From Terebella lapidaria (lineage: Eukaryota > Annelida > Polychaeta > Terebellida > Terebellidae), in assembly GCA_949152475.1 (NCBI GenBank), contig CASCJZ010000014.1:62001-126000 (forward strand): DNA of 64,000 bases. Reading direction: 5' to 3'. Positions within the stretch are counted from its first letter, which is position 1. Each line of letters starts with the position of its first letter. The notes below the pieces were generated by a model. It had not been told where the DNA came from, ran no database searches, and saw only the letters and a program-made list of their open reading frames with translations. The translations under genes were made by a program, and so were the position numbers. Positions 6,647-58,479 of this stretch are shown in pieces.

Positions 6647-6661
6647 TACAATTAGCCTTAA

Positions 6662-15811: not shown

Positions 15812-15813
<2 letters not shown>
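13452..15813. repeat. 15-bp minisatellite array C, left part
   Basis: Head-to-tail copies of the 15-mer CTACAGTACAGAGGA and its variants (GTGGG, GAACT, GGACT endings). It continues at 21564 after the LINE insertion and was clearly one array before that. Because the unit is five codons long, frames stay open for hundreds of codons and give pentapeptide repeats such as YSTED or QRATV. These have no start context, and equally long frames occur on the other strand, so I do not treat them as genes. Confidence 0.97.
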
Positions 15814-19779: not shown

Positions 19780-21124
19780 TATGATGTTTGCCTTCCATCA
19801 CATATTTCGCGAAAAATACCATTAATGTGCGACGGTACATCGAGTGCATATTGCAGAAAAAAAGCGACATATATATATATGATTATCAATTACTATACAA
19901 TTGTACATGTGTGTAGCTCGTTTCTCCACAAAAAACACAAAAAAAAGGAATCGAAAGGTGTTGTGAACCCCCGATTTCCCTGTACTACAATTTTGTTACA
20001 TATGCCCAGTTCGACAGTTTTTTTTTTATGGTACAAATCGCCAGTGAACTGTTGAGACACATGACCATATTTGTTTGTAAACATTGCGCTTCATGACTAG
20101 GGCCTGTACGCCACGTGGCACCGTTTGCAAGAAGTAACGCGAGGGACACAGTGTGGTAAGGGGTCAGTGTGATAATACTCATGAGTTGTGGACGAGAAAG
20201 GCTCAACACCACTCACCGTGGTTTATGTTAATAGCACAGTAACAGGGACAATGTACAGTGCTCAATCTTCGGTCTACATATTTGTTTTCTGAGTTGTGTG
20301 GCAGGCAATATCAATAGTTCAATTGTGACACACTGACCGAGTTCCCACGCTGTCATTCACGTGTATGTAGTTACCTTTTGTTTTCAATGGATTCTCTGTT
20401 CAATTTGCGTGTGACATGTCCCGGGTCATCTCAACAGTGGTACCGCCTCCTCCAAGTGGGTTCTGTAGCTTATCGTGTTTATCGGATACTGACAAATGTG
20501 GTCGTTTCGTGTGCAAACTTCATGACCGCAACTCAGGAAGAACAAATTTAACATGCTTATTTTTTCATAGACATTAGTGATGCAGTCAGTTCCATTTTGA
20601 TACACGATCGATCACACGGTTTGTGATAGTCTCACTTGTACATATACTTATACTTATTGTACATATAATTATTTCATACACGATCATATTGTTCTGTAAA
20701 TATCAGCATGTAGTACACGTTCCGAAGCACACACTTTCGCAAGATGCACTTTGATTATTACAAGCATACTAAAATATTGTCATACTCCTTCGCCTTTGCA
20801 TGGTTTTATCGGTCGATGTAAAATGCAGTTGTATTGATTGTTGTACAAAATATTTATACTTATATTATACAAGTCATATTTCCGTGCATACTATACATGC
20901 CTTGCATTCCTGCTGATACCACACATTTTTACATCATATGTTCTCATTGTCCTGGGTGTTATTTCGAATTGTTCTTGTGATGTTCATGTATATGCGTGCG
21001 TTATAGATTATCTAATACCATACACTTTCACCTCATATCTTTTGATTTCTGCAACAAAACATATAAACTCCATAGTCTGATAGTCTAACGAATATATTTA
21101 GACAGATGTGCGTCAGTGATGTAG
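19780..21124 (-). other. LINE 5' leader without ORF1
   Basis: About 1.35 kb lie between the ORF2 start and the duplicated 5' segments. Longest frames are under 100 codons and none resembles an L1 ORF1 (no coiled coil, RRM or zinc knuckle). It is AT-rich with many ATAC words. Either this lineage dispenses with ORF1, ORF1 has been replaced, or it is supplied by other copies. Confidence 0.55.
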
Positions 21125-32257: not shown

Positions 32258-32760
32258 TACAACAGGCCTCAGAAGTCATTCCTTGACCATGAACAGACCT
32301 CAGAAGTCACTCCCTGATGATGAACAGGCCTTAGAAGTCACTCCCTGGCCATGGGTAGGCCTCAGAGGTCACTCCGTGACCATGAACAAGCCCCAAAAGT
32401 CACTCCCTGACCATGGACAGGCCTCAGTAGTCACTCACTGACCATGAACAGGCCTCAGAAGTCATTCCCCGACCATGAACAGGCCTCAGCACAGAGCTAC
32501 AGTACAGAGGACTACAGCACAGAGCTACAGTACAGAGGACTACAGTACAAATTATAACAGGCCTCAGAAGTCATTCCTTGACCATGAACAGACCTCAGAA
32601 GTCACTCCCTGACCATGAACAGACCTCAGAAGTCATTCCCTGGCCATGGGTAGGCCTCAGAGGTCACTCCGTGACCATGAACAAGCCCCAGAAGTCACTC
32701 CCTGACCATGGACAGGCCTCAGTAGTCACTCCCTGACCAAGGATAGGCCTCAGACATCAT
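32222..32760. repeat. Duplicated junction between arrays C and D
   Basis: The C-to-D boundary (GGACTACAGTACAAATTACA followed by the D unit) is present at about 32240-32275 and again at about 32535-32570 with one difference. A short island of array C (about 32487-32545) therefore lies inside array D. The D units after each junction match in order (ATTCCTTGACCATGAACAGA, then a TGGCCATGGGTAGGCC variant), so about 290 bp spanning the boundary was duplicated. Confidence 0.8.
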
Positions 32761-35700
32761 TCCCTGACCATGAACAGGCCTTAGAAGTCACTCCCTGGCC
32801 ATGAACAAGCTTCAGAAGTCACTCCCTGACCATGAACAAGCCTCAGAAGTCACTCCCTGACCATGCACAGGCCTCAGAAATCATTCCCTGACCATGAACA
32901 GGCCTCAGAAGTCACTCTCTGATCATAAACAAGTCTTAGAAGTGAATCCCTGACCATGAACAAGCCTCACAAGTCACTCCCTGACCATGAACAGGCCTCA
33001 GAAGTCACTCACTGACCATGAACAGGCCTCAGAAGTCATTCCCCGACCATGAACAGGCCTCAAAAGTCACTCCCTGACCATGAACAGGCCTCAGAAGTCA
33101 TTCCCTGACCATGAACAGGCCTCAGAAGTCACTCACTGACCATGGATAGGCCTCAGAAGTCACTCCCTGACTATGAACAGGCCTCAGAAGTCATTCCCTG
33201 ACCATGAACAAGCCTCAGAAGTCATTCCCTGACCATGAACAGGCCTCAAAAGTCACTCTTTGACCATGAACAATTCTTAGAAGTGAATCCATGACCATGA
33301 ACAAGCCTCAGAAATCACTCCCTGACCATGAACAGGCCTCAGAAATCACTCACTGACCATGTACAGGCCTCAGAAGTCATTCCCTTACCATGAACAGGCC
33401 TCAAAAGTCACTCCCTGACCATGAACAGGCCTCAGAAATCATTCCCTGACCATGAACAGGCCTCAGAAGTCACTCCCTGACCATGAACAGGCCTCAGAAA
33501 TCATTCCCTGACCATGAACAGGCCTGACCATGAACAGGCCTCAGAAGTCATTCCCTGACCATGAACAGGCCTCAGAAGTCATTCCTTGACCATGAACAGG
33601 CCTCAGAAGTCACTCCCTGACCATGAACAGGCCTCAGAAATCACTCACTGACCATGAACAAGCCTCAGAAGTCACTCCCTGACCATGAACAAGCCTCAGA
33701 AGTCACTCCCTGACCATGAACATGCCTCAGAAGTCACTCACTGACCATGAACAGGCGTCAGAAGTCGCTCACTGACCATGGATTGGCCTCAGAAGTCACT
33801 CATTGACCATGAACGGGCCTCAGAAGTCACTCCCTGACCATGAAAAGGCCTCAGAAGTCACTCACTGACCATGAACAGGCCTCAGAAGTCACTCACTGAC
33901 CATGAACAAGCCTCAGAAGTTACTCCCTGACCATGATCAGGCCTCAGAAGTCACTCACTAACCATGAACAGGCCTCAGAAGTCACTCCCTGACCATGAGC
34001 AGGCCTCAGAAATCACTCACTGACCATGAACAAGCCTCAGAAGTCACTCCCTGACCATGAACAAGCCTCAGAAGTCACTCACTGACCATGAACAGGCCTC
34101 AGAAGTCACTCACTGACCATGAACAGGCGTCAGAAGTCGCTCACTGACCATGGACTGGCCTCAGAAGTCACTCACTGACCATGAACGGGCCTCAGAAGTC
34201 ACTCCCTGACCATGAAAAGGCCTCAGAAGTCATTCACTGACCATGAACAGGCCTCAGAAGTCACTCACTGACCATGAACAAGCCTCAGAAGTTACTCCCT
34301 GACCATGATCAGGCCTCAGAAGTCACTCACTAACCATGAACAGGCCTCAGAAGTCACTCACTGACCATGAACAAGCCTCAGAAGTCACTCACTGACCATG
34401 AACAGGCCTCAGAAGTCACTCACTGACCATGAACAAGCCTCAGAAGTCACTCCCTGACCATGAACAGGCCTCAGAAATCACTCACTGATCATGGACAGGC
34501 CTCAGAAATCACTCACTGATCATGGACAGGCCTCAGAAGTCACTCCCTGACCATGAACAGGCCTCAGAACTCACTCACTGATCATGGACAGGCCTCAGAA
34601 GTCACTCCCTGACAATGGACAGGCCTCAGAAGTCACTCCCTGAGCATGAACAAGTCTCCGAAATCACTCCCTGACCATGAACAGGCCTCAGAAGTCACTC
34701 CCTGACCATGAACAAGCCTCAGAAGTCACTCCCTTACCATGAACAGGCCGCAGAAGTCACTCACTGACCATGAACAGGCCGCAGAAGTCACTCCCTGACC
34801 ATGAACAGGCCGCAGAAGTCACTCACTGACCATGAACAAGCCTCAGAAGTTACTCCATGACAATGATCAGGCCTCAGAAGTCACTCATTAAGCATGAACA
34901 GGCCTCAGAAGTCACTCACTGACCATGAACGGGCCTCAGAAGTCACTCCCTGATCATGGACAGGCCTCAGAAGTCACTCCCTGACCATGAACAGGCCTCA
35001 GAAATCACTCACTGATCATGGACAGGCCTCAGAAGACAAGTATGATACCAAACACCAAACAATCCGCAAGACTAAACTCAAAATCCATGGACAAAATTTA
35101 CACAATCGGTATGTTAAGGATGGACAAAAATTCAACATTGGTGATCAAGGTCCGAGCAATTTGAATATCACAGACATCCGGCGAAGCCAAATGTGAGATC
35201 AGGTGTACCAGTAAGAGAAAGCTTCTCTTGCCTCGCATGCGACACTCACTCCCTGACCATGAACAGGCCTCAGAACTCACTCACTGATCATGGACAGGCC
35301 TCAGAAGTCACTCCCTGATCAGGAACAGGCCTCAGAAGTCACTCACTGATCATGAACCAGCCTCAGAAGTCACTCCCTGACCATGAACAAGCCTCAGAAA
35401 TCACTCCCTGACCATGAACAGGCCTCAGAAGTCACTCACTGACCATGAGGAGGCCTCAGAAGTCAATCCCTGACGATGAACAGGCCGCAGAAGTCACTCA
35501 CTGATCATGGACAGGCCTCAGAAGTCACTCCCTGACCATGAACAGGCCTCCGAAATCACTCACTGATCATGGACAGGCTTCAGAAGTCACTCCCTGACCA
35601 TGAACAGGCCTCAGAAATCACTCACTGATCATGGACAGGCCTCAGAAGTCACTCCCTTACCATGAACAGGCCTCAGAAGTCACTCACTAACCATGAACAG

Positions 35701-38700
35701 GCCTCAGAAGTCACTCACTGACCATGAACAGGCCTCAGAAGTCACTCACTGACCATGAACAGGCCTCAGAAGTCACTCACTGACCATGAACGGGCCTCAG
35801 AAGTCACTCACTGATCATGGACAGGCCTCAGAAGTCACTCCCTGACCATGAACAGGCCGCAGAAGTCACTCACTGACCATGAACAAGCCTCAGAAGTTAC
35901 TCCATGACAATGATCAGGCCTCAGAAGTCACTCATTAACCATGAACACGCCTCAGAAGTCACTCACTGACCATGAACAAGCCTCAGAAGTCACTCACTGA
36001 CCATGAACAGGCCTCAGAAGTCACTCACTGACCATGAACGGGCCTCAGAAGTCACTCCCTGATCATGGACAGGCCTCAGAAGTCACTCCCTGACCATGAA
36101 CAGGCCTCAGAAATCACTCACTGATCATGGACAGGCCTCAGAAGACAAGTATGATACCAAACACCAAACAATCCGCAAGACTAAACTCAAAATCCATGGA
36201 CAAAATTTACACAATCGGTATGTTAAGGATAGACAAAAATTCAACATTGGTGATCAAGGTCCGAGCAATTTGAATATCACAGACATCCGGCGAAGCCAAA
36301 TGTGAGATCAGGTGTACCAGTAAGAGAAAGCTTCTCTTGCCTCGCATGCGACACTCACTCCCTGACCATGAACAGGCCTCAGAACTCACTCACTGATCAT
36401 GGACAGGCCTCAGAAGTCACTCCCTGATCAGGAACAGGCCTCAGAATTCACTCACTGATCATGAACCAGCCTCAGAAGTCACTCCCTGACCATGAACAAG
36501 CCTCAGAAATCACTCCCTGACCATGAACAGGCCTCAGAAGTCACTCACTGACCATGAGGAGGCCTCAGAAGTCAATCCCTGATGATGAACAGGCCGCAGA
36601 AGTCACTCACTGATCATGGACAGGCCTCAGAAGTCACTCCCTGACCATGAACAGGCCTCAGAAATCACTCACTGATCATGGACAGGCTTCAGAAGTCACT
36701 CCCTGACCATGAACAGGCCTCAGAAATCACTCACTGATCATGGACAGGCCTCAGAAGTCACTCCCTGACCATGAACAGGCCTCAGAAGTCACTCACTAAC
36801 CATGAACAGGCCTCAGAAGTCACTCACTGACCATGAACAGGCCTCAGAAGTCACTCACTGACCATGAACAGGCCTCAGAAGTCACTCACTGACCATGAAC
36901 GGGCCTCAGAAGTCACTCACTGATCATGGACAGGCCTCAGAAGTCACTCCCTGACCATGAGCAGGCCTCAGAAGTCACTCCCTGGCCATGAACAATCCTC
37001 AGAAGTCACTCCCTGACCATGAGCAGGCCCCAGAAGTCACTCCCTGGCCATGAACAATCCTCAGAAGTCATTCCCTGACCATAAACAGGCCTCAGGTTCA
37101 CTTCCTGATCATGAACAGGCCTCAGAAGTCACTCACTGATCATGATCAGGCCTCAAAAGTCACTCCCTGACCATGAACAGGCCTCAGAAGTCACTCACTG
37201 ATCATGGACAGGCCTCAGAAGTCACTCACTGATCATGGACAGGCCTCAGATGTCACTCCCTGACCATGAACAGGCCTCAGAACTCACTCACTGATCATGG
37301 ACAGGCCTCAGAAGTCACTCCCTGACCATTAACAGGCCTCAGAAATCACTCACTGATCATGGACAGGCCTCAGAAATCACTCCCTAACCATGATCAGGCC
37401 TCAGAAGTCACTCCCTGACCATGAACAGGCCTCAGAAGTCACTCCCTGACCATGAACAGGCCTCAGAAGTCACTCACTGACCATGAACAGGCCTCAGAAG
37501 TCACTCCCTGACCATGAACAGGCCTCAGAAGTCACTCACTGGCCATGAACAATCCTCAGAAGTCACTCCCTGACCATGAGCAGGCCTCAGAAGTCACTCC
37601 CTGGCCATGAACAATCCTCAGAAGTCACTCCCTGACCATGAGCAGGCCTCAGAAGTCACTCCCTGGCCATGAACAATCCTCAGAAGTCACTCCCTGACCA
37701 TAAACAGGCCTCAGATTCACTTCCTGATCATGAACAGGCCTCAGAAGTCACTCACTGATCATGATCAGGCCTCAAAAGTCACTCCCTGACCATGAACAGG
37801 CCTCAGAAGTCACTCACTGATCATGGACAGGCCTCAGAAGTCACTCACTGATCATGGACAGGCCTCAGAGGTCACTCCCTGACCATGAACAGGCCTCAGA
37901 AGTCACTCACTGATCATGGACAGGCCTCAGAAGTCACTCCCTGACCATTAACAGGCCTCAGAAATCACTCACTGATCATGGACAGGCCTCAGAAATCACT
38001 CCCTAACCATGATCAGGCCTCAGAAGTCACTCCCTGACCATGAACAGGCCTCAGAAGTCACTCCCTGACCATGAACAGGCCTCAGAAGTCACTCACTGAC
38101 CATGACCAGGTCTCAGAAGTCACTCCCTGACCATGAACAGGCCTCAGAAGTCACTCCCCGACCATGAACAGGCCTCAGAAGTCACTCCCTGACCATGAAC
38201 AAGCCTCAGAAATCACTCACTGACCATGAACAGGCCTCAGAAGTCACTCACTGACCATGGACTGGCCTCAGAAGTCACTCACTAACCATGAACAAATTTC
38301 AAAAGTCACTCCCTGACCATGAACAGGCCTCAGAAGTCACTCTCTGAGCATGAACAGGCCTCAGAAGTCACTCACTAACCATGGACTGGCCTCAGAAGTC
38401 GCTCCCTGACCATGAACAGGCCTCAAAAGTCACTCCCTGACCATGAACAGGCCTCAGAAGTCACTCCCTGACCATGGACTGGACTCAGAAGTCACTCCCT
38501 GACCATGAACAAGCCTCAGAAGTCACTCCCTGACCATGGAGAGGCCTCAGAAGTCACTCCCTGACCATGATCAGGCCACAGAAGTCACTCCCTGACCATG
38601 AACAGGCCTCAGAAGTCACTCACTGACCATGAACAGGCCTCAGAAGTCACTCCCTGACCATGAACAGGCCTCAGAAGTCACTCCCCGACCATGAACAGGC

Positions 38701-41008
38701 CTCAGAAGTCACTCCCTGACCATGAACAAGCCTCATAAATCACTCACTGACCATGAACAGGCCTCAGAAGTCACTCCCTGACCATGGACTGGCCTCAGAA
38801 GTCACTCACTAACCATGAACAAATTTCAAAAGTCACTCCCTGACCATGAACAGGCCTCAGAAGTCACTCTCTGAGCATGAACAGGCCTCAGAAGTCACTC
38901 ACTAACCATGGACTGGCCTCAGAAGTCACTCCCTGACCATGAACAGGCCTCAGAAGTCACTCACTGATCATGGACAGGCCTCAGAAGTCACTCCCTGACC
39001 ATGAACAGGCCTCAAAAGTCACCTATTATCCATGAACAAGCCTCAGAAGTCACTCCCTGACCATGAACAGGCCTCAGAAGTCACTCCCTGACCATGGACT
39101 GGCCTCAGAAGTCACTCACTAACCATGAACAATCCTCAGAAGTCACTCCCTGACCATGAACAAGCCTCAGAAGTCACTCCCTGACCATGAACAGGCCTCA
39201 GAAGTCACTCCCTGACCATGAACTGGCCTCAGAAGTCACTCGCTGACCATGAACAGGCCTCAGAAGTCACTCGCTGACCATGAACAGGCCTCAGAAATCA
39301 CTCACTGACCATGAACAGGCCTCAGAAGTCACTCCCTGACCATGAACAGGCCTCAGAAATCACTCACTGACCATGAACAGGCCTCAGAAGTCACTCACTG
39401 ACCATGAACAGGCCTCAGAAGTCACTCCCTGACCATGAACAGGCCTCAGAAGTCACTCACTGACCATGAACAGGCCTCAGAAGTCACTCCCTGACCATGA
39501 ACAGGCCTCAGAAGTCACTCACTGACCATGAACAGGCCTCAGAAGTCACTCCCTGACCATGAACAGGCCTCAGAAGTCACTCACTGACCATGAACAGGCC
39601 TCAGAAATCACTCACTGACCATGAACACTGAACAGGCCTCAGAAGTCACTCCCTGACCATGAACAGGCCTCAGAAGTCACTCCCTGACCATGAACAGGCC
39701 TCAGAAGTCACTCACTGACCATGAACAGGCCTCAGAAGTCAATCCCTGACCATGAACAGGCCTCAGAAATCACTCACTGACCATGAACAGGCCTCAGAAG
39801 TCACTCACTGACCATGAACAAGCCTCAGAAGTCACTCACTGACCATGAACAGGCCTCAGAAGTCATTCCCTGACCATGAACAGGCCTCAGAAATCACTCA
39901 CTGACCATGAACAGGCCTCAGAAGTCACTCACTGATCATGGACAGGCCTCAGAAGTCACTCCCTGACCATGAGCAGGCCTCAGAAGTCACTCACTGATCA
40001 TGGACAGGCCTCAGAAGGCACTCCCTGACCATGAACAGGCCTCAGAAGTCACTCCCTGACCATGAACAGGCCTCAGAGGTCACTCATTGATCATGGACAG
40101 GCCTCAGAAGTCACTCACTGATCATGGACAGACCTCAGAAGTCACTCCCTGACCATGAACAGGCCTCAGAAGTCACTCCCTGACCATGAACAGGCCTCAG
40201 AAGTCACTCCCTGACCATGAACAGGCCTCAGAAGTCACTCACTGATCATGGACTGGCCTCAGAAGTCATTCCCTGACCATGAACAGGCCTCAGAAGTCAC
40301 TCACTGATCATGGACAGGCCTCAGAAGTCACTCCCTGACCATGAACAGGCCTCAGAAGTTACTCACTGATCATGGACAGGCCTCAGAAGTCACTCACTGA
40401 CCATGAACAGGCCTCAGAAATCACTCACTGATCATGGACAGGCCTCAGAAGTCACTCCCTGACCATGAACAGGCCTCAGAAGTCATTCACTAACCATTAA
40501 CAGGCCTCAGAAGTCATTCCCTGATCATGGACAGGCCTCAGAAGTCACTCACTAACCATGTACAGGCATCAGAAGTCAATCCCTGACCATGAACAGGCCT
40601 CAGAAGTCACTCCCTGACCATGAACCGAACTCAGAAATCATTCATTGACCATCAACAGGCCTCAGAAGTCACTCACTGGCCATGAACAATCCTCAGAAGT
40701 CATTGCCTGACCATGAGCAGGCCTCAGAAGTCACTCCCTGACCATGAACAGGCCTCAGATTCACTTCCTGATCATGAGCAGGCCTCAGAGGTCACTCACT
40801 GATCATGGACAGGCCTCAGAAGTCACTCACTGATCATGAACAGGCCTCAGAAGTCACTCACTGATCATGGACAGGCCTCAGAAATCACTCACTGATCATG
40901 GACAGGCCTCAGAAGTCACTCACTGATAATGGACAGGCCTCAGACGTCACTTCCTGATCATGATCAGGCCTCAGAAGTCACTCACTGACCATGAACAGGC
41001 CTCAGAAT
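32258..41008. repeat. 31-bp minisatellite array D
   Basis: About 270 copies of a 31-bp unit, CTCACTGACCATGAACAGG then CCTCAGAAGTCA, with common variants CCCTGACC, GATCATGGACAGG and AACAAGCCTC. Three-unit and longer patterns recur (for example AATTTCAAAAGTCACTCCC near 38290 and 38822). It is homologous to array A: both read CC-T/A-TG-G/A-ACAG-A/G-CCTCAGAAGT in register. The array ends in AGAATTCAACAG near 41008. Confidence 0.97.
35036..36353. repeat. Two copies of a 209-bp non-array insert, in a 1109-bp duplication
   Basis: A non-repetitive segment of about 209 bp (35036-35244), beginning ACAAGTATGATACCAAACAC and ending CTCGCATGCGAC, replaces part of an array unit. It recurs at 36145-36353, 1109 bp later, differing at about one base. 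Surrounding D units are duplicated with it; markers just upstream recur at 1047 bp, so two 31-bp units were gained or lost. The origin of the insert is unknown; its short plus-strand frame (about 50 codons) resembles nothing I can name. Confidence 0.85.
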
Positions 41009-42167
41009 TCAACAGTGTTTACATGAACTTAGTTTAATAAGTAGCTTTTCAATGATGATTCCATACATCATTTATCATGATCTTTGCTTGACAACCTCAT
41101 AGTGCGAGATGGGTTTTACCCACCCATTGTGTCAAGTGGTGAGATAAATATAGGGCCAGAAGCCATGCTCTGTGATGCTCGATCAAGAACCTGCATGGCA
41201 GACTGACCACAAGCTTGGAATCAGCCACAGACCATTTGTACATGTATGACCATCGTCAAGCATGAGTTTTACATCACAATGCACGTTAACGTACAATGCA
41301 TGCTTCGAACTTGAGGTAAATAAAAATATGGGGTATAATTATAGACAACTACTGCATTATGGTGCGAGTTATCTCGCATGGGTAATTTCATCGAGCATAA
41401 CTTTACGAGTGCTCCGCAGAACGAATAAATGTGAAACAAATCCCAGTGTAATACAGCATTTGGTTTAATATAAGTCCACAATAATGTTTTTCAGCACACA
41501 CAAAATATTTAAAACAACAATAACAATGCAATATGGATATTTATTGCACTCATCAAACTACATTGAATAAACTACATCCTGGTCCCTGATATATGTCGTA
41601 ACATGTATTTATTCATCACGTGTATATTGACATATTGTTTGATTGTATTTCTTGTGATGGACAGTTGGCTTCTGTTACATTTATTTCGGCCAGATTATAT
41701 CAACAGGCATCATCAAAAAGTGTAAATGTCATTTCGACCATTCATACATTGTTCTAGTTGCATAGAAACATGATTGAACGAAATATGTGGAAAATTCTTA
41801 TAATTTGTATCTTTTCATTATGTACATTTCGGGCGAGTGGTTGATTTCCGATCTTGTGCTGGTTTTGGTAACTAGTTCATCTATTATTATTGAATTGTGT
41901 CAAGAGACACCCACTTAGAAGTGTAAATACCAACTGAACCATGTAGGCATTATTTTGGTGGCATTGAAATAAGATAGGATGAAATGTGCAAAAAACACAA
42001 ATTTCAGCGAAAAATTTGGCCGAAAAACCAATTCCCCAGCTTGTCATCAACCAGATTCAGTACCTAGGGACCCTAATGATCAATTTCAGCTATGTGGACA
42101 AATGTTGTACCGCCGGTTTAGGCATCTCCTCAAATATGACTCTCTGCTGCTCCACTACATGTGGATA
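41009..42167. other. AT-rich spacer, no feature recognised
   Basis: Follows the end of array D. Only short frames occur, without family resemblance. No tRNA, rRNA or palindromic element was seen. Confidence 0.5.
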
Positions 42168-45696: not shown

Positions 45697-46062
45697 AGTC
45701 ACTGAAAGATTCTGAAGTGGCTCTCCAACCTACACGTTGTTATCTAGCCGACGTTGCTATGTGTTGAACTGGTCTATTATCAGGATTATAGGGGTTACAG
45801 GTCCACGTCGGCTAGTAGTTATCCATGTGGAGTTGTGGACGGTTGGAATTGTCGCGGACACTCTCGCCTCCATCATGCTCGCCTCGGCACTGCTCGTGGA
45901 GGTGGGCGATAATAGAGTTAACGGTAACATTTCCTCATATTGTAATCATTATCAGTGATTATGTCCCAGATTAAATACATATTATAGCAATGTTAAAAGA
46001 TAATAACCGTCTATAAATGCTTCCTAATTTACAACACGAAATGTACAACTGTAATACCGGCT

Positions 46063-46618
46063 TCACAGGCATTTGTCTCAGGACAGGCGCGAGGGAGTGG
46101 GTTGGGGGGGGGGGGGGGGGGGGTGGCATCAGGAGTAAAAAAACAAGAAGGTATGAAACGAACGTTGATTTCAGATACTGTGATGATGAATTCAATGCGC
46201 TGCTGTGACAGAAATAATACGAATAAAAACGAAATTCTTTCACAGTATACTTCGTTTGTCTTTTCTCAACCAGGAAAGACCTTAACATCAACAATTGGGC
46301 ACTTGTACACGGGGATATGACCATCGGAATGAAGCTACCACCCCCTTTTCCCGCGTCTTCTACACTCCTTCATGACACTCGCAAGCCCAAAAATTACAAA
46401 GATCACGACTTTACTGCCAATCATCTCATCGTACATACCAAAACCCGTACATTAAATAATTCCCAGTGATGATATCTTCCTAAATTGAACAAGTTTTTCG
46501 CAGACTTCCGTCCAAGACGTAGACGTTTAGAGGATTTCGACAAGATTTCTGTCAATAAAACACCAGAACATTTCAGCGGTCACATGATGCATCGTGCTGC
46601 GCCGCAGTGAATAAATAA
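46063..46618 (+). repeat. Left terminal inverted repeat (~556 bp) with 6-bp target duplication
   Basis: Begins TCACAGGCATTT directly after CCGGCT (46057-46062). Contains a run of 20 G (46104-46123) and ends at GCAGTGAATAAATAA. It matches the right arm in inverted orientation apart from the G-run surroundings and isolated bases such as position 46601. Fossil arms would have drifted, so the two have not diverged for long or were homogenised. Confidence 0.95.
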
Positions 46619-46901
46619 AACGGGTCATACAAAAACGAGCGCGAAGTGCGGGCGTCACGGAAAGCAATGTGATAAACTCGCCCAGGCCAATGTGTCACTC
46701 ATTCAGATTCGTTCTGAAACCGCAGGTTATTCAAAGTATCCTATAATGTATGGAATAAAATACACGAAGAGTGAAGCTATTGAGCCTATATATTTATGCA
46801 TGGAATTGTAATAAATTTGATATATATATACATAGTATTATAGATAATGACCTCGATCGTGAAGCTTCTTGGCACACACTTTTGGCAAAGATTTGGACGA
46901 T

Positions 46902-49900
46902 ATGGATAAACACCAAGAAGGTGTGATCGGTTTGGCCCGCCAAGGTCACAATCTATTTATATGTGGCCAAGCCGGGAGTGGTAAAACCTTCACAGTGAAA
47001 GCCATTCAGGATATTTTAACCAAAGATGGCAAAATATGCCAGGTTACGTGCACAACTGGCATTGCGTGCTTGCAATATGAGCGTGCCATGACCATACACA
47101 GGTAGGCTTAACATGAGCATGTGCACATGTAAAAATAGTTACCGTATGTCTTGATAGATTATCCTGGTTGCAATACCAACTAAAATAGCTACTAGCCCAA
47201 TTACTAGTACCATGATCTAAAATATAATTTATGACAGTATGAAGTAGATATATTTATTGCAAACAAATATTATTGCGCTCATCAACCGTCTTCCAAAACC
47301 ACCACAACCACAGGTGGAGCGGAATTGAAGACGGCAGGTACACGGGAAGCCAGCTGGTGGCGCAAATATGGAACAATGAAAAATTTATCTCAGCAAGGGA
47401 AAGAATACTTCAAACTGACGTCCTTTTCATTGACGAGGTGATTTAGAGATACATTTCATTCTACATTCTAATTAGTCACATTACTGTGACAGAACAAAGG
47501 TGACGTTCGAATATTACCCAAAATAAATATAGGAACAGGCCATTTTATGAACTTTTTCAATGAATATCGCTCAGTGTTTCTTTTCCTGATGCTAACACAT
47601 TCTTGTGGATTGTTTACCACAGATATCCATGCTGAGCGCTAAGCTGTTTGAAGACATACACAATATTTGTACGAGTGTCCGGCAAAACAACAAACCTTTT
47701 GGAGGCCTTCAGGTGGTCTGCATCGGGGATTTCTTTCAACTGCCTCCAGTACCTAGCGTTAGGTTTGGAGATCCTGGGAACTTTGCGTTTACTTCCCGTC
47801 TGTGGGTTGAGACCTTCCATAGAGTGGAGTTGAAAGGATGCCATCGTCAAAGTGAAAGCGATCTTTTAAAGGTATCATTACCATTTATAGGGGAAAAAAA
47901 TTGTGTGCATGGGTGAACACCATAAAATTCCAGGCCCATTTGGCCTGAACCCTCCTCCTCTCCCCACACTTGCAGGGATCATATACCTTTGTCTAAGATA
48001 CAGAGTTTTACTGAAGTTATTGGTGCATATAATCCAGTTTATCGTATTTTATAGTGTAATTAAAAAAGACATATTTATTTGCAACATTTTTAGTTAATCA
48101 ATGAAGTCTCTAAAGGCATCATCACTGAAAGCAGACAGTGTCTGCATAGTCTGACCCGAAACACCGATGACACCAGAGATGCAGTACATTTATTTGCCAC
48201 AAACTTGGAAGTGGACTGTTTCAACACCGACATGCTGCTTCAGGTATAGCATAGTAAAAATCCTAATTTGCTCACAAGGATTATTTTACAATTTTTCGAT
48301 ATTCGAGATTATTCATACACAATATAAAATAAAAATGTTACTATTACTCATACCCTAATACACAGTGAATGACTGGTGCAATGCCGAATTGCTACTTCAT
48401 AGTTGATGACTGTGAATTTGACAATCATGTAATACATCGATATGAAATAAACGCAAATGAAATAAATTTTTCACAATATATTCTCATTTATAGACACCTG
48501 GCCAGGTCCACAACTTTAAGGCCGACGACAGCGGTGATAAAAAACTATTGTCCACTAGAGAAGGCATCATGGCTCCGAAGTTGCTGTCTTTAAAGATTGG
48601 TTCCCCAGTGATGCTGCTCCGAAACTTGGACATTTCATCAGGGCTGGTTAACGGTACGATGGGGGAGGTGGTTGACATCACCAATGATGGACCGGTCGTT
48701 CATTTTTCATGCGGCCCCACATTGAAACTGAAAAGAGAATCATTCTCAGGTATACTAGCATACTTTGTCAGGGGATCACGAGGAGGGGTTGAAAAGGTTT
48801 CCAAGACTATCGTAACTTTGCCAATACTTCACAGACATATATTAACCATTTTGGTCGAATAAACTGTTCAAAGATTGAGTGTCCTGTCGCACATTTTTTT
48901 CTTTCAGTATTTGACCCAGCACTCAACTCTACTATTGCAAAACGAACACAATTCCCAATTAAACTTGCTTACGGCATTACAATCCACAAATCTCAGGGCA
49001 TGACAATCGAGCGTGTAGTGATAAATTGTCAGTCTATTCAAACACCAGGACAGTTGGGTGTTGCACTTGGCAGGGGTACTCAAATTAGTGGGATAGAAGT
49101 GCAGAACTTCCGCGACCGGCACATCATCCGGCAACCCGAGTGTATATTTGAATACTACAGTACTTCTTCACTTTCTCTCGATGAAGACTTATCCTGCTGC
49201 AGAAACAAAACACAACAGGCCACGACGATGTGCTCAAAGGAAATTGTGCCATGCACCGATGTTCACAGCGATGAAGAATCAGATGACTCGGAAGATAGCT
49301 TGGGAAATTATGCAAATATGAGTAACATCTTTGATAAGAGACTTACTGCATGCGTTGAGGCAGATGAAGTACACATTGACCTCGAAGGTTTAATCTCAGA
49401 AACAAAATACACTTCAGAGATCACGAATCTACATGAGAAAACTAACCAGATTCTGGATTCGTTACCACAGCTTGGTGATAATTTGGAAAACTTCTGCAAA
49501 TTAAAGATGAAAATCTTCAATGACCTCTTCAAAATTCACAAACACACCCAAGGAGAGCTCACCTCCTTCTTCACAGGTGTTCACTTGCATCTCAGCAGTG
49601 AGGAGCACAAGACTGATGTTATGCAGCTATTTGGTAAAACCAAACTTGGAATGGAGCATCACCATGCTGCACAGAGATTATTCACTAAACTACGAACGAA
49701 GTTTTTGAAGGAAAAAGAGCCTTCCGTAGACAAAACTAGCACAGATACAAGTCAGAGATGTGTTACACCAAACATGACCACAACAGAGCGCGGAAAAATA
49801 AGGTACCTTGGAGGTTACTGCTTGGCTAAGATCAAACACAAACTGACAAAACGTCTAAGAACCATGTCAACTTCAGCGAAAAAAGTGCACAGACAAGAAG

Positions 49901-50838
49901 TCCAGGACATTCAGTTCAAGTTGTCCATACTGGACATTGCGGTACGGTCCCAGGCACAAATTTTGTCAGACAGTAAAGACCCACAAAGTCTTGATGTAAC
50001 CATTAACAAGCAGAATGTTCGACTTGGTTTGACGCACATCACTGATAACTGCTTTGACTTTTTTGTAAATCTTTGTCAGAAATGCCTTCGAATCAACAAC
50101 CTCAGTGAATTGAATAGACTTGGTGAGAACATCCATAAGGACACCGTACACGCCCTGTGTTCTGATATGGACTTATTTGAAGAATTCTATATGATATTCT
50201 GTGAAGAACTTGAGTACGCAGAGGGGGTAGAATTGATTGTGCATACGTTGTACAGTGAATCTATTAAGCTACTTGTATCAACTCTAACAGATCAGCTTAG
50301 GCGAGACTTTCTTGATGTCATCGCAATTGAAAAGAAGGCTGCTCACCGCAAGGATATCTTGCAAAAAAAGTCAACGCTGACATATGCTCTGATCACTGAG
50401 GATAATTCCCCCCATAAGTCCATTTCTCATCAGCTCATATCAACATACATAAAGGAACACAACACAATGCCGGCAGCAATAACCAAATCACAGTTGCAAA
50501 CACTTTGCCAGGCTTATGGTCTGACAACTGTCACAAAAGAAACGAAGAAGGATTTGGTTCAAAAACTTGTACAGAAGATCCCCAAGGAAAATTCAATGTC
50601 AAATTTGGATGCCTTTCCATCGACATCAGGGGGGACCAATGCCCCTCGGACAAGTGTTCGATCAAAAAAAGCCAAAAACGATATCTGTAGGATATGTCGA
50701 CAAGCTGGGGAAGACACGTGGGTGCAATGCAACATTTGTGAATATTGGTATCATCGTAACTGTGCCGAGATTTTCGATGAGGATGAATGGAACAATCTAC
50801 AAAAGCCTGATGTTGAGTTTCGGTGCAACTTTTGTTGA
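46902..50838 (+). CDS. PIF1-type DNA helicase with SAP-like motif and C-terminal PHD finger (transposon gene)
   Basis: Six exons with GT-AG junctions: 46902-47101, 47314-47437, 47623-47871, 48094-48243, 48494-48749 and 48908-50838. Joined, they give 2910 bp, exactly 969 codons plus stop, with no frame break. Superfamily-1B helicase motifs appear in order: Walker A GQAGSGKT (22-29), Walker B VLFIDE (103-108), IGDFFQLPP (142-150), a CHRQ motif IV-like segment (181-184), and LAYGITIHKSQGMT (346-359) with GVALGRG after it. These span exon borders, which confirms the splicing. PIF1 helicases unwind DNA 5' to 3'. A 450-residue extension of unknown fold follows, with an acidic patch (SDEESDDSEDS), a SAP-like helix pair (SQLQTLCQAYGLTTVTKETK) and a C4HC3 PHD finger in the last 53 residues. 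A TATA-like ATATATATATACA lies near 46820 and AATAAA at 50941. The first ATG is just before Walker A, so an upstream exon is possible. Confidence 0.88.
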
Positions 50839-50988
50839 GAATGTACCATCAGTTTGTATATACTAGTATCCAGCGTACTAGTATCCCATGATCATGCTTC
50901 ATGTCACTGTCACAAAACCTTGTATTTCTGTTTAAGTGAGAATAAACATGCATTTGGAATATATATGTTTTTTCTTAGTATTTGTACC

Positions 50989-53900
50989 TTATAGACATGT
51001 CAGGCGAGTTTTAGCAGATCTCTGGGTGTCGTGATATGAAACTCCGGTATAATTCCGTTTTAAGGGTCGCAATGTTAGGTTGACTGAGTATGGAGCTGCT
51101 CCAATCCCACCTGTGTTCCCTTTCTTGGATACCGATGACTGTCCAAGAATTATCGAGTTCATTGATTTTGCATACTGTGCATAGTTTGGATTCGAACTCG
51201 CTCCATTGTGCAGGCCTATTAAAGTGCAAAGAGTACAACATCATAAATGGACATCTAGTGATGTTTGAAAACAACATACACATGTTACCAATTCCTACAT
51301 CAACATTGCCCATAAGCTAACCTCTTTGTTGACAAAAGGTGTTCTCTATAACATCACTGTTGAGTCTTGATGGTGTGATGGAGCTTCCTGGATTCTGCCT
51401 TTGACGGATGTTCACCAACTGGATGAAGCCTGTGATACAACTGTCCAGGTCTTCTCGTGCCTCAGCAGTCATCAACAGTGTTGTGTTATTTCTGGGGTGT
51501 TTGGCGATTACTGCTGTTTCCCAGTCCTTGAACCACTGGTTCACCTTTTGTAGGGTCTCAATACGAGGATCATCGACATTGTATAGTGGTCGTGGGTCTC
51601 TGAAAACCTCAATCAAGGCACTGGTCTGTGTGATGAGTTCAATACACGGATCCAGGAATTTTCCTTTGTGACCCAGTGACACTTTCATATCATACATTAG
51701 TTGCAACATGTCTTTATTGAGTACATCTTCCGCCAAATGATTGCGCATTTTGTCCGCATTGTCTAGTCGGAGATGTTCTAAGGTCAGTCTGTGATGGATC
51801 TTGATGGGACTGGATTGATTGTGTTCATAAGCCTCCCACCACGTTTGCCATCGAATTGGTTGGCCTCTGTTTGACTCAATTTTCCGAGTGCCCGATTGGC
51901 TGCTGTTATACAGACTGTTCCTGATCTTTTTTATCGTGTGGGAGTAATCCATGATGAAAACCATTTTTTTGCTTGGATCGACCGGGTTGTATGCAAGAAA
52001 GGATTCCTGAGAGGGTGATGCTGGGAAATGAATTTTCATAAATTGTCTGTTAGTCAGGGCACCGTCCATGTTTGTGTAGAGCACATCGAACCCATATGAG
52101 GCAAGTTCCTGAACGGCATCCCAGAAAGTTATGTACAAGTCGGTAGCAGTTGCTTGTGTACATGGGTAATGTGCAATGGGAAATCTGAACCCATCAAATC
52201 CGAGATATAGTAGTTGCAAAACATGGGTTGCTAGTACTCGTTTGGAATCTTGTTTGTGTATCAACTGCAGTGAATCTGCTTCATTACCAAGGGATGCGAA
52301 TCCCACAAGTTTATATCCTTCTGCACTGCGCACCATTTGTAAATCGGGTTGTATGGCCATTTCGTCCAATATCAATCCCCCCTTCCTGTTACTAGCCGAT
52401 ATTTTCAACCGCTCTGCTTCAGCGTGCATCCAAATGAATGTGCTATCTTGTAACCCTAGGAACGAAAGACACAAGATAATTTGGGTTGATTGAAGGTCTG
52501 ACTGAAGACCTTCATAACATATATCATATAAGAGTAAAACTTTTGAAATTTGGTGTCACAAACTTTGTGATGTACTGTAAAAGAAGACGTTTGAGATGAA
52601 AATCAATTCCAGCTATGTCCATTCTACAGTACCGATTTTGCAAAACCTCACCAAAATGTTAGCACGATGAACCTAGTGTAAAGTTTGACGCCGCCTGCTT
52701 TCCTGAATCCTCACAGATAGTCCGCTCACCTTGGGTCACTGTGGGTGCACGCCCGCTATCCCGGATCCTCGCGGATAGTCCGCTCACCGAGGGTCACTGC
52801 GGGCGCAGTATTTACTTTAGGATGTTAACCAGGCAGCAGTCTGCCGAGCAAACCCTTACGTAAGGACATCACTCAGATACAGGATCATCACCATGGACAG
52901 CCCGACTGTCTGCCAGAGCCTGTGTAGCACCATCCCAGGGCGAGAGACCGGTGATCACAGGGACAAGTCCTGTTCCAGCACGGTCCCCCTCCTGGGCCCC
53001 CGATTAGAAATCGTCACCAGGGCCTTACATCCCATTTCTAACCGGACGGAAGGGACGTGGAGCTCGTGGTCGAGCTCACCCATTGTCCTCTCACTTTGCT
53101 AGCTCTGAGACCACTCTGAACACACAAATCGGCTTGGTAGTATTTATAACCCCAAGCACGAGACACGAGGGATGACGTAACACCATTGTTACAGTATAAT
53201 GGAGCGAGAGGATTAGAGAGCGTTACCATGCAACGAACATGCTTCGAACACGAAGCGGCCAAAACAAGAATAGTGTTAACAATGAAACTCCTGCCGTGAT
53301 CTTTGGGCAAATCGCCACACTAGCATTTAGCATGTGCTAGGCCAACTTCGCCTGACCTAGCATCGTGCGATTTGATGCTAGCATCGTGTGTGCAAGCATC
53401 GCCTGATGCTAGCATTGCTTCTTGGCACTGTGGCACACTAAACGCATTTTTTTTTTTGTGAAGGTCAGTATATGCTCGCATATGCTCACAAGCACATGGT
53501 TGAATGGTTTATAGAAAGTCTGTATTTTGTACATCGTATTGGCAATTGCAGTGTTCAAGTTCAGTTCATATTAGAGTCTGTATTTGCATCTGAAATATAG
53601 GATGTGCGCATCTGTGCGAGACAATGCTCGGCTGTTCGACTGAGACAGCAGCCTGATGCATTGGCTTCATGCCTCCTCCACTGTTCGCACTGTGCGAATT
53701 CATGTTAGCACCGAGTCACATGTAATTGCACGGGCTAGCAATTAGCATGGCTAGTGAGGTTTTGTGAAATCGTTACTGTAACTAGACGTCAATGCCTAAA
53801 GGCCTTGGAGACATTTCAGGATGAAAAAACAAATTGCTGGTTCAGGAATAACATGACGAAAGTCCCATTTACATGATGAAAGTAACATGACAAAAGATAT

Positions 53901-55471
53901 ATCTAAGACATATCTGTCTAGGGCGACGATTCCGAAACTGACCCTCTAGTAAGCACTGTTTCTGAGATATCGATGAAAATAAAAAATGCAGGCTCAGCTG
54001 AAAATATCGCAGGTCAAGGTCAAACTCAATACCCTTCAAGCCTAGAATAGTTTTAGTTTCAAAATAATGTCTGTTTTGTTATAGATCGCACCGTTTCCGA
54101 GATATCGATAAAAATGAAAAATGCCGACTCAGCATAAAAATTTCAGGTCAAGGCCTGCCTCGAAATGGATAGGATTCTTCTCTGTTATTATACGAACCAC
54201 CATGCAAAGTCCCGCAGTCATTGCCCAAATACTCCTTGCAATATCATGCCGAAATCGGACAGATTGATTTCATCTTCACGGACCCTGGAGCCAGCTCAAA
54301 AACAAATAGATTCTTCTGCACAACATTATTAACCAACAATAAACATTTGGCAAAGATACATTGAGGCAAACTGAACTCATCGTATGGCAACCAACAAGTG
54401 AAGGAGAAGAAGAAATTTTCTTTTGACAAAACCATAAAGGCATTTCTGCTGAAATGCATTAATTAGATAATGGTATATCAGTAGTTCAGTAAAGAAAATA
54501 CCAGATTCTTGTGGCACTGCGTTTTTATACATGGACAAGAGACGACCAGATGGTAATCTTAGAAACGAGGAGTTGGCCAGTTCTTTGTATGTTCCAGGAC
54601 TTCGAGCATACAGACATAGGCATAGTTGAATCATCTCTCTGCTCCACTTAGTAGACCTCTTGTCTTTCATCTCACATGCAGCTTTCTGCTCCAAAATCAT
54701 GTCCTTGAACTGGTCTGGGCATTTTGGAAGAATGATATTCAAAACATCTTTCAGGTCATCCTTGTCAAGATCTCCTATGTCCAAGGGAGTGCTGCGCACC
54801 GGTTCACACATTTTCATCCCCTGACATGGCCTGCAACAGTTTGATTTGGACAGAGGAGACACACATGTCAAACACTGTTTTGTCCTCATTCTCCCAACTG
54901 GATTTTCATCACCAGGGATCAGCCAGCTCTCGACGTAACTTGATTTAACTGAAACAGTGTGTGGCCTCTCCTTGCCTGTGCACAACTTGAGTTTGTCTAC
55001 GAATATCAGTGTTTCAATGATTGTGCAAATTGGTAGCTGTTCACTCAGTCCGAATCGACCCACGTCCAAACGATTTTCGCCAACTGACAGTGACCAATTT
55101 CCGTCTGGATGCAGGACAACAGTTTTAACGACCTCGTGTCCATTGACGTAGTACATTGTTGGCAACAGAATGGTCACAGTTTCTTGCGACCACGACACAA
55201 AGTAGTTTTGTTGGTTGAGGTCCAAGTCTGATAACTTGGTTGTCATTTGTTATCACCAGGGATAAACTGAATTCCTGCGTAATAGTATTTCACTTTCTTT
55301 CCATGTCGTTTCTGGGTTACTTTTGGCTTGAAGACCTTCTGCATGTACTGACCGAATATCTTACTGTTTACTGGCGTGTGTCCATCAAACAACATTTGTT
55401 CTCTGTATGAGTAGTAAACTTCTTCCTGGCAAACACTGCCATCTGACTTGCGCTCAAGGTTGGACAATATC
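50989..55471 (-). CDS. Transposase: RFX-like winged helix + cysteine cluster + P-element/THAP9-like catalytic core
   Basis: Minus-strand exons, 5' to 3': 55471-55243 region, continuing in another frame to 54502; then 52455-51322; then 51215-50989. The last two junctions (TCTG|GT...TAG|GG and AGAG|GT...TAG|GC) restore ESGLQDST and CQQRGLHNG in frame. The N-terminal part, EVYYSYREQM...NSKIFGQYMQKVF...KKVKYYYAGI, matches the RFX DNA-binding fold. Next comes a cysteine cluster CLTCVSPLSKSNCCRPC, then a helical KWSREMIQLCLCLYARSPG block as in THAP9. The core has GLILDEMAI, LYTNMDGALTNR, IMDYSHTIKKIRN and SDVIENTFCQQRG, which correspond to the acidic residues and DxxHxxK-RN signature of P-type RNase-H-fold transposases. 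The RFX frame ends in a stop overlapping the ATG of the next frame by 4 bases (55243-55246): a one-base indel in an A run, or a tiny intron. A 5' exon is probably missing. Confidence 0.8.
52456..54501 (-). other. 2-kb intron of the transposase gene, with GC-rich repeats
   Basis: Contains two tandem ~55-bp copies with GATAGTCCGCTCACC (52720-52800), a GC-rich block to about 53300 that I could not assign, many GCTAGCATCG-like words (53320-53420), and two direct copies about 130 bp apart that share GAGATATCGAT-AAAAT-AAAAATGC (53965 and 54095). No exon signal. The block may be a foreign insertion, since the other introns of both genes are under 300 bp. Confidence 0.5.
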
Positions 55472-56856
55472 CTATGAATAAAAGTCATGACATGCATGAG
55501 GACACTGTACTGAATCCTACATTAATTGTGACACATACCATCCCCTTCCCTTTCTAAAAAAACAATCTCGAACAAAAAGAAATCAGCCTAAGGGCTAAGA
55601 TACTTTACCAGACAATGGTAAATTGACAAAGACAATTTTTAGTTCATTAATTCTTCACTTGAATGGTCGTTCTGAGGTTTCGGTATAGTTAGAAAATCAG
55701 TTTGTGGGACTATCCCATAATATCACCATGTCCAAATTTGGGCGTTTATCAACGAAAATGGCTGCCCAGTATTTTATTTCAAAATTTCAGAAAATTTTCA
55801 CTGTAAACTTTACAATTTTTTTCTATTATCAATAATTGACATTTCTCAAAGTTGAAAAAACAATAAACAAATTCTTAAAATATCAGTTTGTGAAGACTAT
55901 CCCTTCGTATCAATACAAAGTTTTGGAAGATTTCATTAAATGATCTCAACGGAGAAGACGTTCGAATATTGCAAAGCCCAAAATGGGGTATTTTTCAGCA
56001 AATATGGTCTCCATCTTGAAAACAATGCGAAAATTATTATTAAAACCCCCCTCAGTCTTAGACTATTTTAGAGAGATTTGACTGTAAACTTTTAGGGAAA
56101 AAATGTGGACGGTGGACGAAGGGCGATGGATGCAACACCATGCCAATAGGTTAGCAGATCAAAAGGTTCAATAGCCTAAAAACAGGCAAAATACGAAAGA
56201 ACAGTTTGGACATATAGGGACACGTATTTTTCCCCTTCATTATTTCATAGACTTATATTTATTTGTTGGTACCCTAAAATAGTCGATAGGCCTACACACT
56301 TTGACAAGTTCATTATTGTTAAACAATGCATTTTCAGCAAACTGGGTGAAGCAGCGAGAATATAGTGTGCAAATATACACTAGTGTTCTTACCAAGTAAC
56401 AATCATTTTTGCGTATGGTTCATGTAGTTTTTGCAAATTCAAATTTCCCTCTGCCGTCTGCGACCCTCATTGGGCAAAGTATACCGTAATTCCTTCACTT
56501 TATATTTTTGCATTAGTCCCCTAAATGCGTGAAAGATAATCGCAGAAAACCAAAGTCAGAAAAATAACGTAGGTTGCTATAGTTTATTATGCACTAACGA
56601 CAGTATGTGATACGGCATAAGTATGCTTGAGTGCATGACTGAATGTATGTAGGCGTGAAATAAAATATTGCCGTACGTGTGCGAACGCGCAATTGTGGTA
56701 GCCAAAAAAGCTTGTTTCTTCAAATGTCAATGTAATTAATTCAACAAGAGTTTGTTGACAATTATTTCACTGGGAATAAACATAGAGATGTCATATATTG
56801 CTAAGTATTATTATCAACGTAGTATTTGAATTTCCATGTAAACTTACTTCAAAGTA
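55472..56856. other. 5' region of the transposase gene with decayed dispersed repeats
   Basis: Should hold the transposase promoter and any first exon, but no frame could be linked. 55690-56170 contains repeated ATCAGTTTGTG-GACTATCCC words (55697, 55884), ATGGCTGCC/ATGGTCTCC stretches and a GGACGGTGGACGAAGGGCGA tail, typical of old dispersed repeats in marine invertebrates. Confidence 0.4.
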
Positions 56857-57409
56857 TTATTTATTCACTGCGGTGCAGCACGATGCATCATGTGACCGCT
56901 GAAATGTTCTGGTGTTTTATTGACAGAAATCTTGTCGAAATCCTCTAAACGTCTACGTCTTGGACGGAAGTCTGCGAAAAACTTGTTCAATTTAGGAAGA
57001 TATCATCACTGGGAGTTATTTAATGTACGGGTTTTGGTATGTACGATGAGATGATTGGCAGTAAAGTCGTGATCTTTGTAATTTTTGGGCTTGCGAGTGT
57101 CATGAAGGAGTGTAGAAGACGCGGGAAAAGGGGGTGGTAGCTTCATTCCGATGGTCATATCCCCGTGTACAAGTGCCCAATTGTTGATGTTAAGGTCTTT
57201 CCTGGTTGAGAAAAGACAAACGAAGTATACTGTGAAAGAATTTCGTTTTTATTCGTATTATTTCTGTCACAGCAGCGCATTGAATTCATCATCACAGTAT
57301 CTGAAATCAACGTTCGTTTCATACCTTCTTGTTTTTTTACTCCTGATGCCCCCCCCCCCCCCCCCCCCAACCCACTCCCTCGCGCCTGTCCTGAGACAAA
57401 TGCCTGTGA
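56857..57409 (-). repeat. Right terminal inverted repeat (~553 bp) with 6-bp target duplication
   Basis: Inverted copy of 46063-46618, ending ...ATGCCTGTGA at 57409 and followed by CCGGCT (57410-57415). Contains the C run 57349-57368 that mirrors the G run of the left arm. Confidence 0.95.
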
Positions 57410-58479
57410 CCGGCTTACCTGCTTACGCCGGCTTGTAACACCACTCCAAACAAATACAACCGTAAATAACCGGATGTTGACAAGGCCACAATACCGTACT
57501 TGTGCGTATATTATGGATTATGAAATTGATCATGGCCCTAGAGTAATAGGGATCTGCATACAGGTGTTTTGAATAGTCCAATATGGTGAACGGTGATGAA
57601 ACGGTATTTTCGTGTAATTTGACACCATGAAATGGGCGATAGATCTGATTAAGTTAGCCCTGTGGCATGGCCTACAAATACAATGATTTTTCAACGCAAG
57701 TAGTAATAACTATTTTTTTTTGCCGAAGCACTATTATTTTTCTGTAACATATATTTCGGCAATAACCAGTTGATATGAAAACACCCTTAAATGACTAATA
57801 TATTCCAGAAAAAATATATCATAATCCATGGCATGTCATAATTATCAGCGAAATATTGCCTTGGTCCTTTTGTAACCTGAGCACGGTTAAAATGGGAAAA
57901 TTCCAAGTAGAATTATCTGTATGGAGATGATTATTTAAAACAGTTTGTTTGTTCCTCTGATTTACCATATAGTCCAGTTGCCAAATGACTATTTTCTTGT
58001 GAAGCATGTTTTGGCGTCATTATGAACTTTTTTTGTTGATTCATCATCTCTGGGCATTCCTGAGTCAGAATCAGCCGGGTGCCACCTTGGCACCCTTGGG
58101 GAATTTTTTTCAGAGCCGAAAAACAAAATGGCTGCCACCGAATACCGCTGAATTTACTTCTTTGACAATATCTCCGCTTCTAGGCCACTTAGAAGCACAA
58201 ACTTGGTGTCTACTACTAGGTTTTCATGGTCAAGGAATCCAAATATAATACTGCCAAACTTGTATACATAACAGCTTATCCGGTTTTCGAGACTGACGAA
58301 CCCGATTCTTAAAAAAAATTGGTTCTGCTCAAGTCATATGTATTTTCCACTTTAATTAACAATCTTGGTGTTCACTACTGGGTTAGTGAATCCATAGTAC
58401 TGACCCAACAAAAGCTGTATGATTTTTACTCATCAACTGTTACATGTGACAACACTGTGGGCCATTTACAGATCATAAC

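What the first reader, a model, noticed from the sequence alone, without database searches (positions are those of the whole stretch)
46063..57409. An 11.35-kb transposon pairing a PIF1-PHD helicase with an RFX-headed P-like transposase
Seen: 555-bp near-identical inverted ends, a perfect CCGGCT duplication, and two spliced convergent genes filling the inside. Known: P-type transposases usually travel alone, and PIF1-type helicases are hallmarks of Helitrons, which have no TIRs. Inference: this is a self-mobilising TIR element of a lineage I cannot name, with its own helicase and chromatin reader. It is the best candidate for an undescribed system here.
Basis: partly seen in the sequence, partly recalled or inferred. 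Interest (0 to 1): 0.92.

Follow-up and report, generated by a model that had tools for sequence, protein, structure and literature searches.

The report
P-like transposon carrying its own helicase
A complete-looking 11.3-kb jumping gene of the P-element kind carries, besides its P-like transposase, a second spliced gene for a DNA-unwinding PIF1 helicase, a pairing I did not find described in the papers I could search.

Summary
The element is 46064-57408 (11,345 bp). Its inverted ends (558/555 nt, 98.9% identical) begin CA and end TG, and are flanked by a perfect 8-bp duplication, ACCGGCTT, not the 6-bp CCGGCT reported. Eight base pairs is the P-element length.

Plus strand: a six-exon gene model (GT-AG introns) gives a 969-aa PIF1 helicase with a sub-threshold SAP match and a C-terminal PHD finger. 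By score it is nearer solved Pif1 proteins than the one Helitron protein matched.

Minus strand: a three-exon model gives a 701-aa transposase with the P-type RNase H domain, candidate D-D-E residues and a weak GTP-binding-insert match. An RFX domain lies directly upstream in another frame; its stop overlaps the transposase start (ATGA), so "RFX-headed" is not shown as one protein. No THAP match was found.

Best reading: an autonomous P-superfamily cut-and-paste transposon that acquired a PIF1 helicase. Each end holds a G20 tract, a potential G-quadruplex and possible target for it. One copy only: no relatives found in the collections searched, which hold no eukaryotic genomes, so co-inheritance of the two genes is untested.

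The parts
46056..46063 (.). left target-site duplication ACCGGCTT (8 bp)
   Evidence: read directly; identical to 57409-57416
46064..46621 (+). left terminal inverted repeat, 558 nt, starts CACAGG, with a G20 tract at 46104-46123
46902..50838 (+). helicase gene model: exons 46902-47101, 47314-47437, 47623-47871, 48094-48243, 48494-48749, 48908-50838; 969 aa; PIF1 helicase + sub-threshold SAP + PHD
   Evidence: all five introns GT-AG (158-250 nt)
50941..50946 (+). AATAAA poly(A) signal-like site after the helicase gene
50989..55246 (-). P-like transposase gene model: exons 55246-54502, 52455-51322, 51215-50989; 701 aa; candidate D279, D379, E619
   Evidence: introns GT-AG (2,046 and 106 nt); no profile match spans either splice joint
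55243..55497 (-). RFX DNA-binding-domain frame (first ATG at 55497), stop overlapping the transposase ATG (ATGA)
52625..53780 (.). probable nested short inverted-repeat insertion in the transposase intron
   Evidence: 27-nt inverted arms, 89% complementary; ends TACAGTA/TACTGTA
56854..57408 (-). right terminal inverted repeat, 555 nt, with a C20 tract at 57349-57368
57409..57416 (.). right target-site duplication ACCGGCTT
   Evidence: read directly

Best explanation
An autonomous cut-and-paste DNA transposon of the P-element superfamily, in a eukaryote, that carries its own PIF1-family helicase. Shown: boundaries, 8-bp duplication, P-type RNase H domain, an open 969-aa helicase model, an adjacent RFX domain, no THAP match in the frames scanned. 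Inferred: the transposase excises and integrates the element by the P mechanism (GTP-assisted D-D-E chemistry, 8-bp staggered integration). The RFX domain, made by coupled translation or by splicing, recognises the ends in the role THAP plays in P elements. The PIF1 helicase opens or helps repair structured DNA at the ends, most simply the G20 tracts present in both TIRs, during replication or gap repair after excision. SAP and PHD would tether the helicase to chromatin.
For: TIR identity and 8-bp duplication. PF21787 at 41.7 bits against a cut-off of 24.6 (41.3). Candidate D279, D379 and E619 compare with D230, D303 and E531 of Drosophila P (PMC7776569, passages). A GBD match sits at the expected place, but weakly (0.041; 0.013). 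Helicase: the best solved Pif1 matches at 1.5e-59 in two stretches (residues 2-305 and 326-414); another (6hpt) matches 3-412 in one stretch, which spans all five splice joints; the Helraiser (Helitron) protein reaches 57 bits over 264-392 against 205 for the best Pif1. The two genes' stop codons lie about 150 bp apart, tail to tail, between the TIRs. Of four G or C runs of 8 or more in 64 kb, two are the mirrored TIR tracts; of five G-quadruplex-type motifs, two are in the TIRs.
Against: One copy only; no relative found in 5 protein scans and 1 DNA-pattern scan of viral contigs, 2 scans of prokaryote genomes and 1 of phages, none of which is a eukaryote collection. PF21788 (GBD) is below its cut-off, and no match was found for the HTH or the RNase H C-terminal part. 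The PF21787 match begins at the first splice joint and does not cross it, so the transposase exon joins rest on GT-AG and open frame alone. phmmer found no P transposase in the PDB and only non-significant RFX hits (RFX5 E 0.21, RFX1 E 0.63); the RFX frame also matches Pox_D5 weakly (0.013, below cut-off). AlphaFold models were poor (mean pLDDT 36.2 and 36.6), so no fold was confirmed. A poly(A) signal was found for the helicase but none for the transposase in the short stretch scanned. The G-tract role is a guess: two other long G/C runs and three other quadruplex-type motifs lie outside the element.
Confidence: 0.69

Rival explanations
1. A P-superfamily transposon that incidentally captured a helicase gene (host or other TE) in this copy; the helicase plays no part in transposition.
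For: Only one copy is seen; TEs capture genes (general knowledge); by score the helicase is closest to solved Pif1 proteins.
Against: The helicase frame is open over six exons, the two genes are packed tail to tail about 150 bp apart, and the ~550-aa tail ends in a PHD finger, which host PIF1 lacks (recalled).
Confidence: 0.18
2. The pairing is already catalogued (Repbase or Dfam P families) and is an ordinary member of a known sub-lineage. This does not exclude the best explanation; it would only remove the novelty.
For: Repbase holds many animal P families (recalled); helicase-bearing sub-lineages are already named for Academ and Kolobok.
Against: The listings of ten paper searches showed no title or abstract start describing a P-superfamily element with a PIF1 helicase; Repbase and Dfam could not be searched.
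Confidence: 0.3
3. A Helitron-type element, or a composite of a Helitron helicase fragment inserted into a P element.
For: PIF1-type helicases are the hallmark of Helitrons (recalled).
Against: No Rep/Helitron_like_N match in the proteins scanned; clean TIRs and 8-bp duplication; Helraiser scores far below Pif1 proteins (57 vs 205 bits), though no tree was built and only one Helitron protein was matched.
Confidence: 0.05

Closest known systems
Drosophila P element / vertebrate THAP9 (P superfamily)
   Same: P-type RNase H domain, candidate D-D-E order with a (weakly matched) GTP-binding insert between D2 and E, 8-bp duplication; CA..TG ends (those of Drosophila P recalled)
   Different: No THAP match; RFX domain adjacent; 555-nt TIRs instead of 31 bp; extra PIF1-PHD helicase gene; 11.3 kb
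Galileo (P superfamily, Drosophila)
   Same: Long TIRs, P-type transposase, 7- or 8-bp duplications (PMC4168063, passages)
   Different: Galileo has THAP in its transposase; the passages seen mention no helicase, but I did not search that paper for the word
AcademH and KolobokH (helicase-bearing cut-and-paste transposons)
   Same: DNA transposons with an added helicase; Kolobok-1_CCri from a red alga has its helicase on the complementary strand (PMC9587614, passages)
   Different: Kolobok helicases are RecQ type; AcademH makes 9- or 10-bp duplications (PMC10045372, passages); other transposase superfamilies. The AcademH paper itself was not held, so its helicase type was not seen. PMC10799480 (passages) lists PIF1 among domains of AcademH, KolobokH or Helitron without saying which
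Helitron
   Same: PIF1-family helicase
   Different: No TIRs or duplications in Helitrons (recalled); no Rep-type match here

Membership tests
P-element superfamily | P-type RNase H transposase domain | tested here: met
   PF21787 E 1.7e-10, 41.7 bits vs cut-off 24.6
P-element superfamily | GTP-binding insertion domain in the RNase H fold | tested here: inconclusive
   PF21788 at E 0.041 and 0.013, below cut-off, at the expected place
P-element superfamily | catalytic D-D-E | tested here: inconclusive
   candidate D279/D379/E619 by position and by eye; no alignment to a P transposase was obtained
P-element superfamily | 7- or 8-bp target-site duplication | tested here: met
   ACCGGCTT on both sides, one insertion
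P-element superfamily | N-terminal THAP domain (in P, THAP9 and Galileo) | tested here: not met
   no THAP match in the 701-aa protein, its parts, the RFX frame, or in 10 of the 18 minus-strand frames of 25 aa or more between the RFX frame and the right TIR; the other 8 were not scanned and a split exon could be missed. THAP is typical, not required, in my reading
Helitron | Rep (HUH) domain fused to PIF1 helicase, no TIRs | tested here: not met
   no Helitron_like_N match; 555-nt TIRs
AcademH | 9- or 10-bp duplication | tested here: not met
   8 bp here; AcademH lengths from PMC10045372
Academ / Kolobok | Academ or Kolobok transposase | tested here: inconclusive
   the transposase matches the P-type profile; no Academ or Kolobok sequence was compared directly
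KolobokH | RecQ helicase | tested here: not met
   helicase is PIF1 type
PIF1 helicase family | PIF1 helicase core with 2B domain | tested here: met
   PF05970 and PF21530 above cut-off, alignment to solved Pif1; motifs GQAGSGKT, FIDEISML, GDFFQLPPV, GITIHKSQG, GVALGRGT recognised by eye against recalled motifs and placed

The most novel reading that the evidence does not exclude
A distinct lineage of P-superfamily transposons in which THAP end recognition is replaced by an RFX domain, translated from the same message through an ATGA stop-start overlap, and in which a transposon-encoded PIF1-SAP-PHD helicase unwinds G-quadruplex-prone tracts built into both ends, making the element partly independent of host repair helicases.
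Probability: 0.25. Interest if true: 0.78.

Novelty: new variant of a known kind. Interest (0 to 1): 0.62.

Why it matters
After excision, repair of the Drosophila P donor break involves host factors including a Bloom-type helicase (PMC7776569, passages). A P-type element that carries its own helicase would be a natural test of which host step limits P transposition, would add a superfamily to the cut-and-paste ones known to have acquired helicases (Academ, Kolobok), and would suggest that the end-binding domain of P transposases can be exchanged.

Tried and rejected
Tried without result: whole-genome search (no genome held); relatives in viral contigs by protein and by a 24-nt TIR pattern, in prokaryote genomes and phages; P transposase in the PDB by sequence; AlphaFold without an alignment for the transposase core and for the helicase tail (mean pLDDT 36.2 and 36.6), so no fold search was run. 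NCBIfam gave only two below-cut-off TraA relaxase matches, to the helicase's last exon; PHROGs gave a Dda-like helicase match there (8.4e-9) and a weak DNA primase match for the RFX frame (7.8e-4). No tRNA or Rfam feature in the window. X-box-like sites (a recalled RFX consensus, at most one mismatch, plus strand only, no shuffle control) occur at seven places in the element, none in the TIRs; this does not support a canonical RFX target there.

Considered and rejected: Helitron; a host gene pair (both genes lie inside TIRs with a duplication). A random one-base indel as cause of the RFX/transposase frame break is unlikely: of 7,606 simulated single indels that gave a defined overlap (about 7,620 tried, by my arithmetic from the script), 0.84% gave a stop-to-stop overlap of 7 nt or less, 4.5% an ATGA overlap, and 0.11% both, as seen here. 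This tests random indels only. Splicing that joins the two frames stays possible: 21 in-frame GT-AG combinations exist in the stretch examined, so that test does not discriminate. The check for THAP upstream covered 10 of 18 frames.

Changed on recheck: the statement that the RNase H profile match crosses the first splice joint was wrong (it begins there); for that, confidence went from 0.72 to 0.69 and the passenger rival from 0.17 to 0.18.
Full report
Boundaries. The inverted ends are real. The repeat tool splits them into a 515-nt block at 99% and an 85-nt block at 88%, shifted against each other; alignment joins them into 558 and 555 nt, 98.9% identical. Both begin CACAGGCATTTGTC. The flanks show ACCGGCTT ending at 46063 and ACCGGCTT beginning at 57409. 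The duplication is therefore 8 bp, longer than the CCGGCT reported, and the element spans 46064-57408. A self-comparison found no second copy of the TIR or the inside elsewhere in the 64-kb window.

Helicase gene. Six exons with GT-AG introns of 158-250 nt give a 969-aa frame. PF05970 (5.7e-29) and the Pif1 2B domain (6.4e-13) are clear. Among solved structures the best Pif1 (8xak, 5o6b) matches at 1.5e-59 in two stretches, residues 2-305 and 326-414; 6hpt matches 3-412 in one stretch at 6.5e-59, which spans all five splice joints (only the first alignment was printed). The Helraiser (Helitron) protein reaches 57 bits over 264-392. No tree was built. Helicase motifs were recognised by eye and placed. 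The last 50 residues match a PHD finger (21.8 bits in the whole protein, below the cut-off of 24; 26.5 bits when the tail is scanned alone), preceded by a sub-threshold SAP match. The stretch of several hundred residues between helicase and SAP gave only sub-threshold matches in Pfam. A Helitron Rep-type domain was not found.

Transposase gene. Exons 55246-54502, 52455-51322 and 51215-50989 on the minus strand give 701 aa. PF21787 (P-type RNase H, N-terminal part) matches at 1.7e-10 in the exon frame and 2.4e-10 in the joined protein. That match starts at residue 248, at the first splice joint, and so does not test the join; both joins rest on GT-AG sites and frame continuity. The GTP-binding insert is matched only weakly (0.041, 0.013), and the HTH and RNase H C-terminal regions gave no match of their own. 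Candidate catalytic residues are D279, D379 and E619, with the insert starting near 418; in Drosophila P they are D230, D303 and E531 (PMC7776569, passages). These residues are assigned by position and by resemblance to recalled motifs, not by alignment.

RFX. The RFX domain (PF02257, 36 bits vs cut-off 27) is encoded just upstream on the same strand but in a different frame. The same frame matches Pox_D5 weakly (0.013, below cut-off) and a phage primase family (7.8e-4), so a winged-helix domain is safer than a precise RFX function; solved RFX proteins are hit only at E 0.21 and 0.63. The frame starts at an ATG at 55497 (or 55488), or continues from an unseen upstream exon, and its TGA at 55245-55243 overlaps the transposase ATG at 55246-55244. 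A random single indel would rarely leave such a junction: 0.11% of 7,606 simulated cases (4.5% for the ATGA overlap alone). Coupled translation and splicing are both open; 21 in-frame GT-AG combinations exist. No THAP match was found in the proteins scanned, nor in 10 of 18 minus-strand frames upstream of RFX.

Context. The window looks eukaryotic (inference): spliced genes, a 1,269-aa LINE-type protein with endonuclease and reverse transcriptase domains, and long satellite arrays. The source is not named and no genome is held. The 2,046-nt intron of the transposase contains a probable nested insertion, 52625-53780, with 27-nt inverted arms and ends TACAGTA/TACTGTA, which would suit a TA-targeting element (inference).

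Mechanism. The superfamily assignment rests on the RNase H domain, residue spacing and duplication length. How the helicase acts is inference. The TIRs each hold a run of 20 G (46104-46123) or C (57349-57368) within a G-quadruplex-type motif; two other runs of 8 or more and three other such motifs occur elsewhere in the window. PIF1-family helicases are known to unwind G-quadruplexes (recalled). An element with such tracts at both ends may gain from its own PIF1 during replication or during gap repair after excision, a stage at which Drosophila P involves host factors including a Bloom-type helicase. Equally, the helicase may be a passenger.

Novelty. DNA transposons with helicases are known in Academ (AcademH) and Kolobok (KolobokH, RecQ type) (PMC10799480, PMC9587614, PMC10045372, passages). 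Long TIRs with 7- or 8-bp duplications are known in Galileo (PMC4168063, passages). The listings of ten paper searches showed no P-superfamily element with a PIF1 helicase or an RFX domain; I saw titles and abstract starts, and passages of the four papers named here and of the P review only. Repbase and Dfam were not searchable, so this is no proof of absence. I file it as a new variant of the P superfamily.

Noticed in passing
window 15988-19797 (-): Open 1,269-aa LINE-type frame with endonuclease and reverse transcriptase domains and a sub-threshold zf-RVT match.
   Followed up: partly
window 13452-15813, 21564-32254: Arrays of one 15-bp satellite unit (ACAGAGGACTACAGT and rotations), about 158 and 723 copies, with long open frames in several reading frames.
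   Followed up: no
window 3-785, 2061-6648, 32261-41011: Three arrays of 31-bp units with different consensus sequences; the shared 31-bp period is unexplained.
   Followed up: no
window 52692-52807: Two tandem 58-bp GC-rich copies (83% identical) inside the nested insertion.
   Followed up: no
window 53953-54153: A 67-nt direct repeat (84%) in the transposase intron beyond the nested insertion.
   Followed up: no
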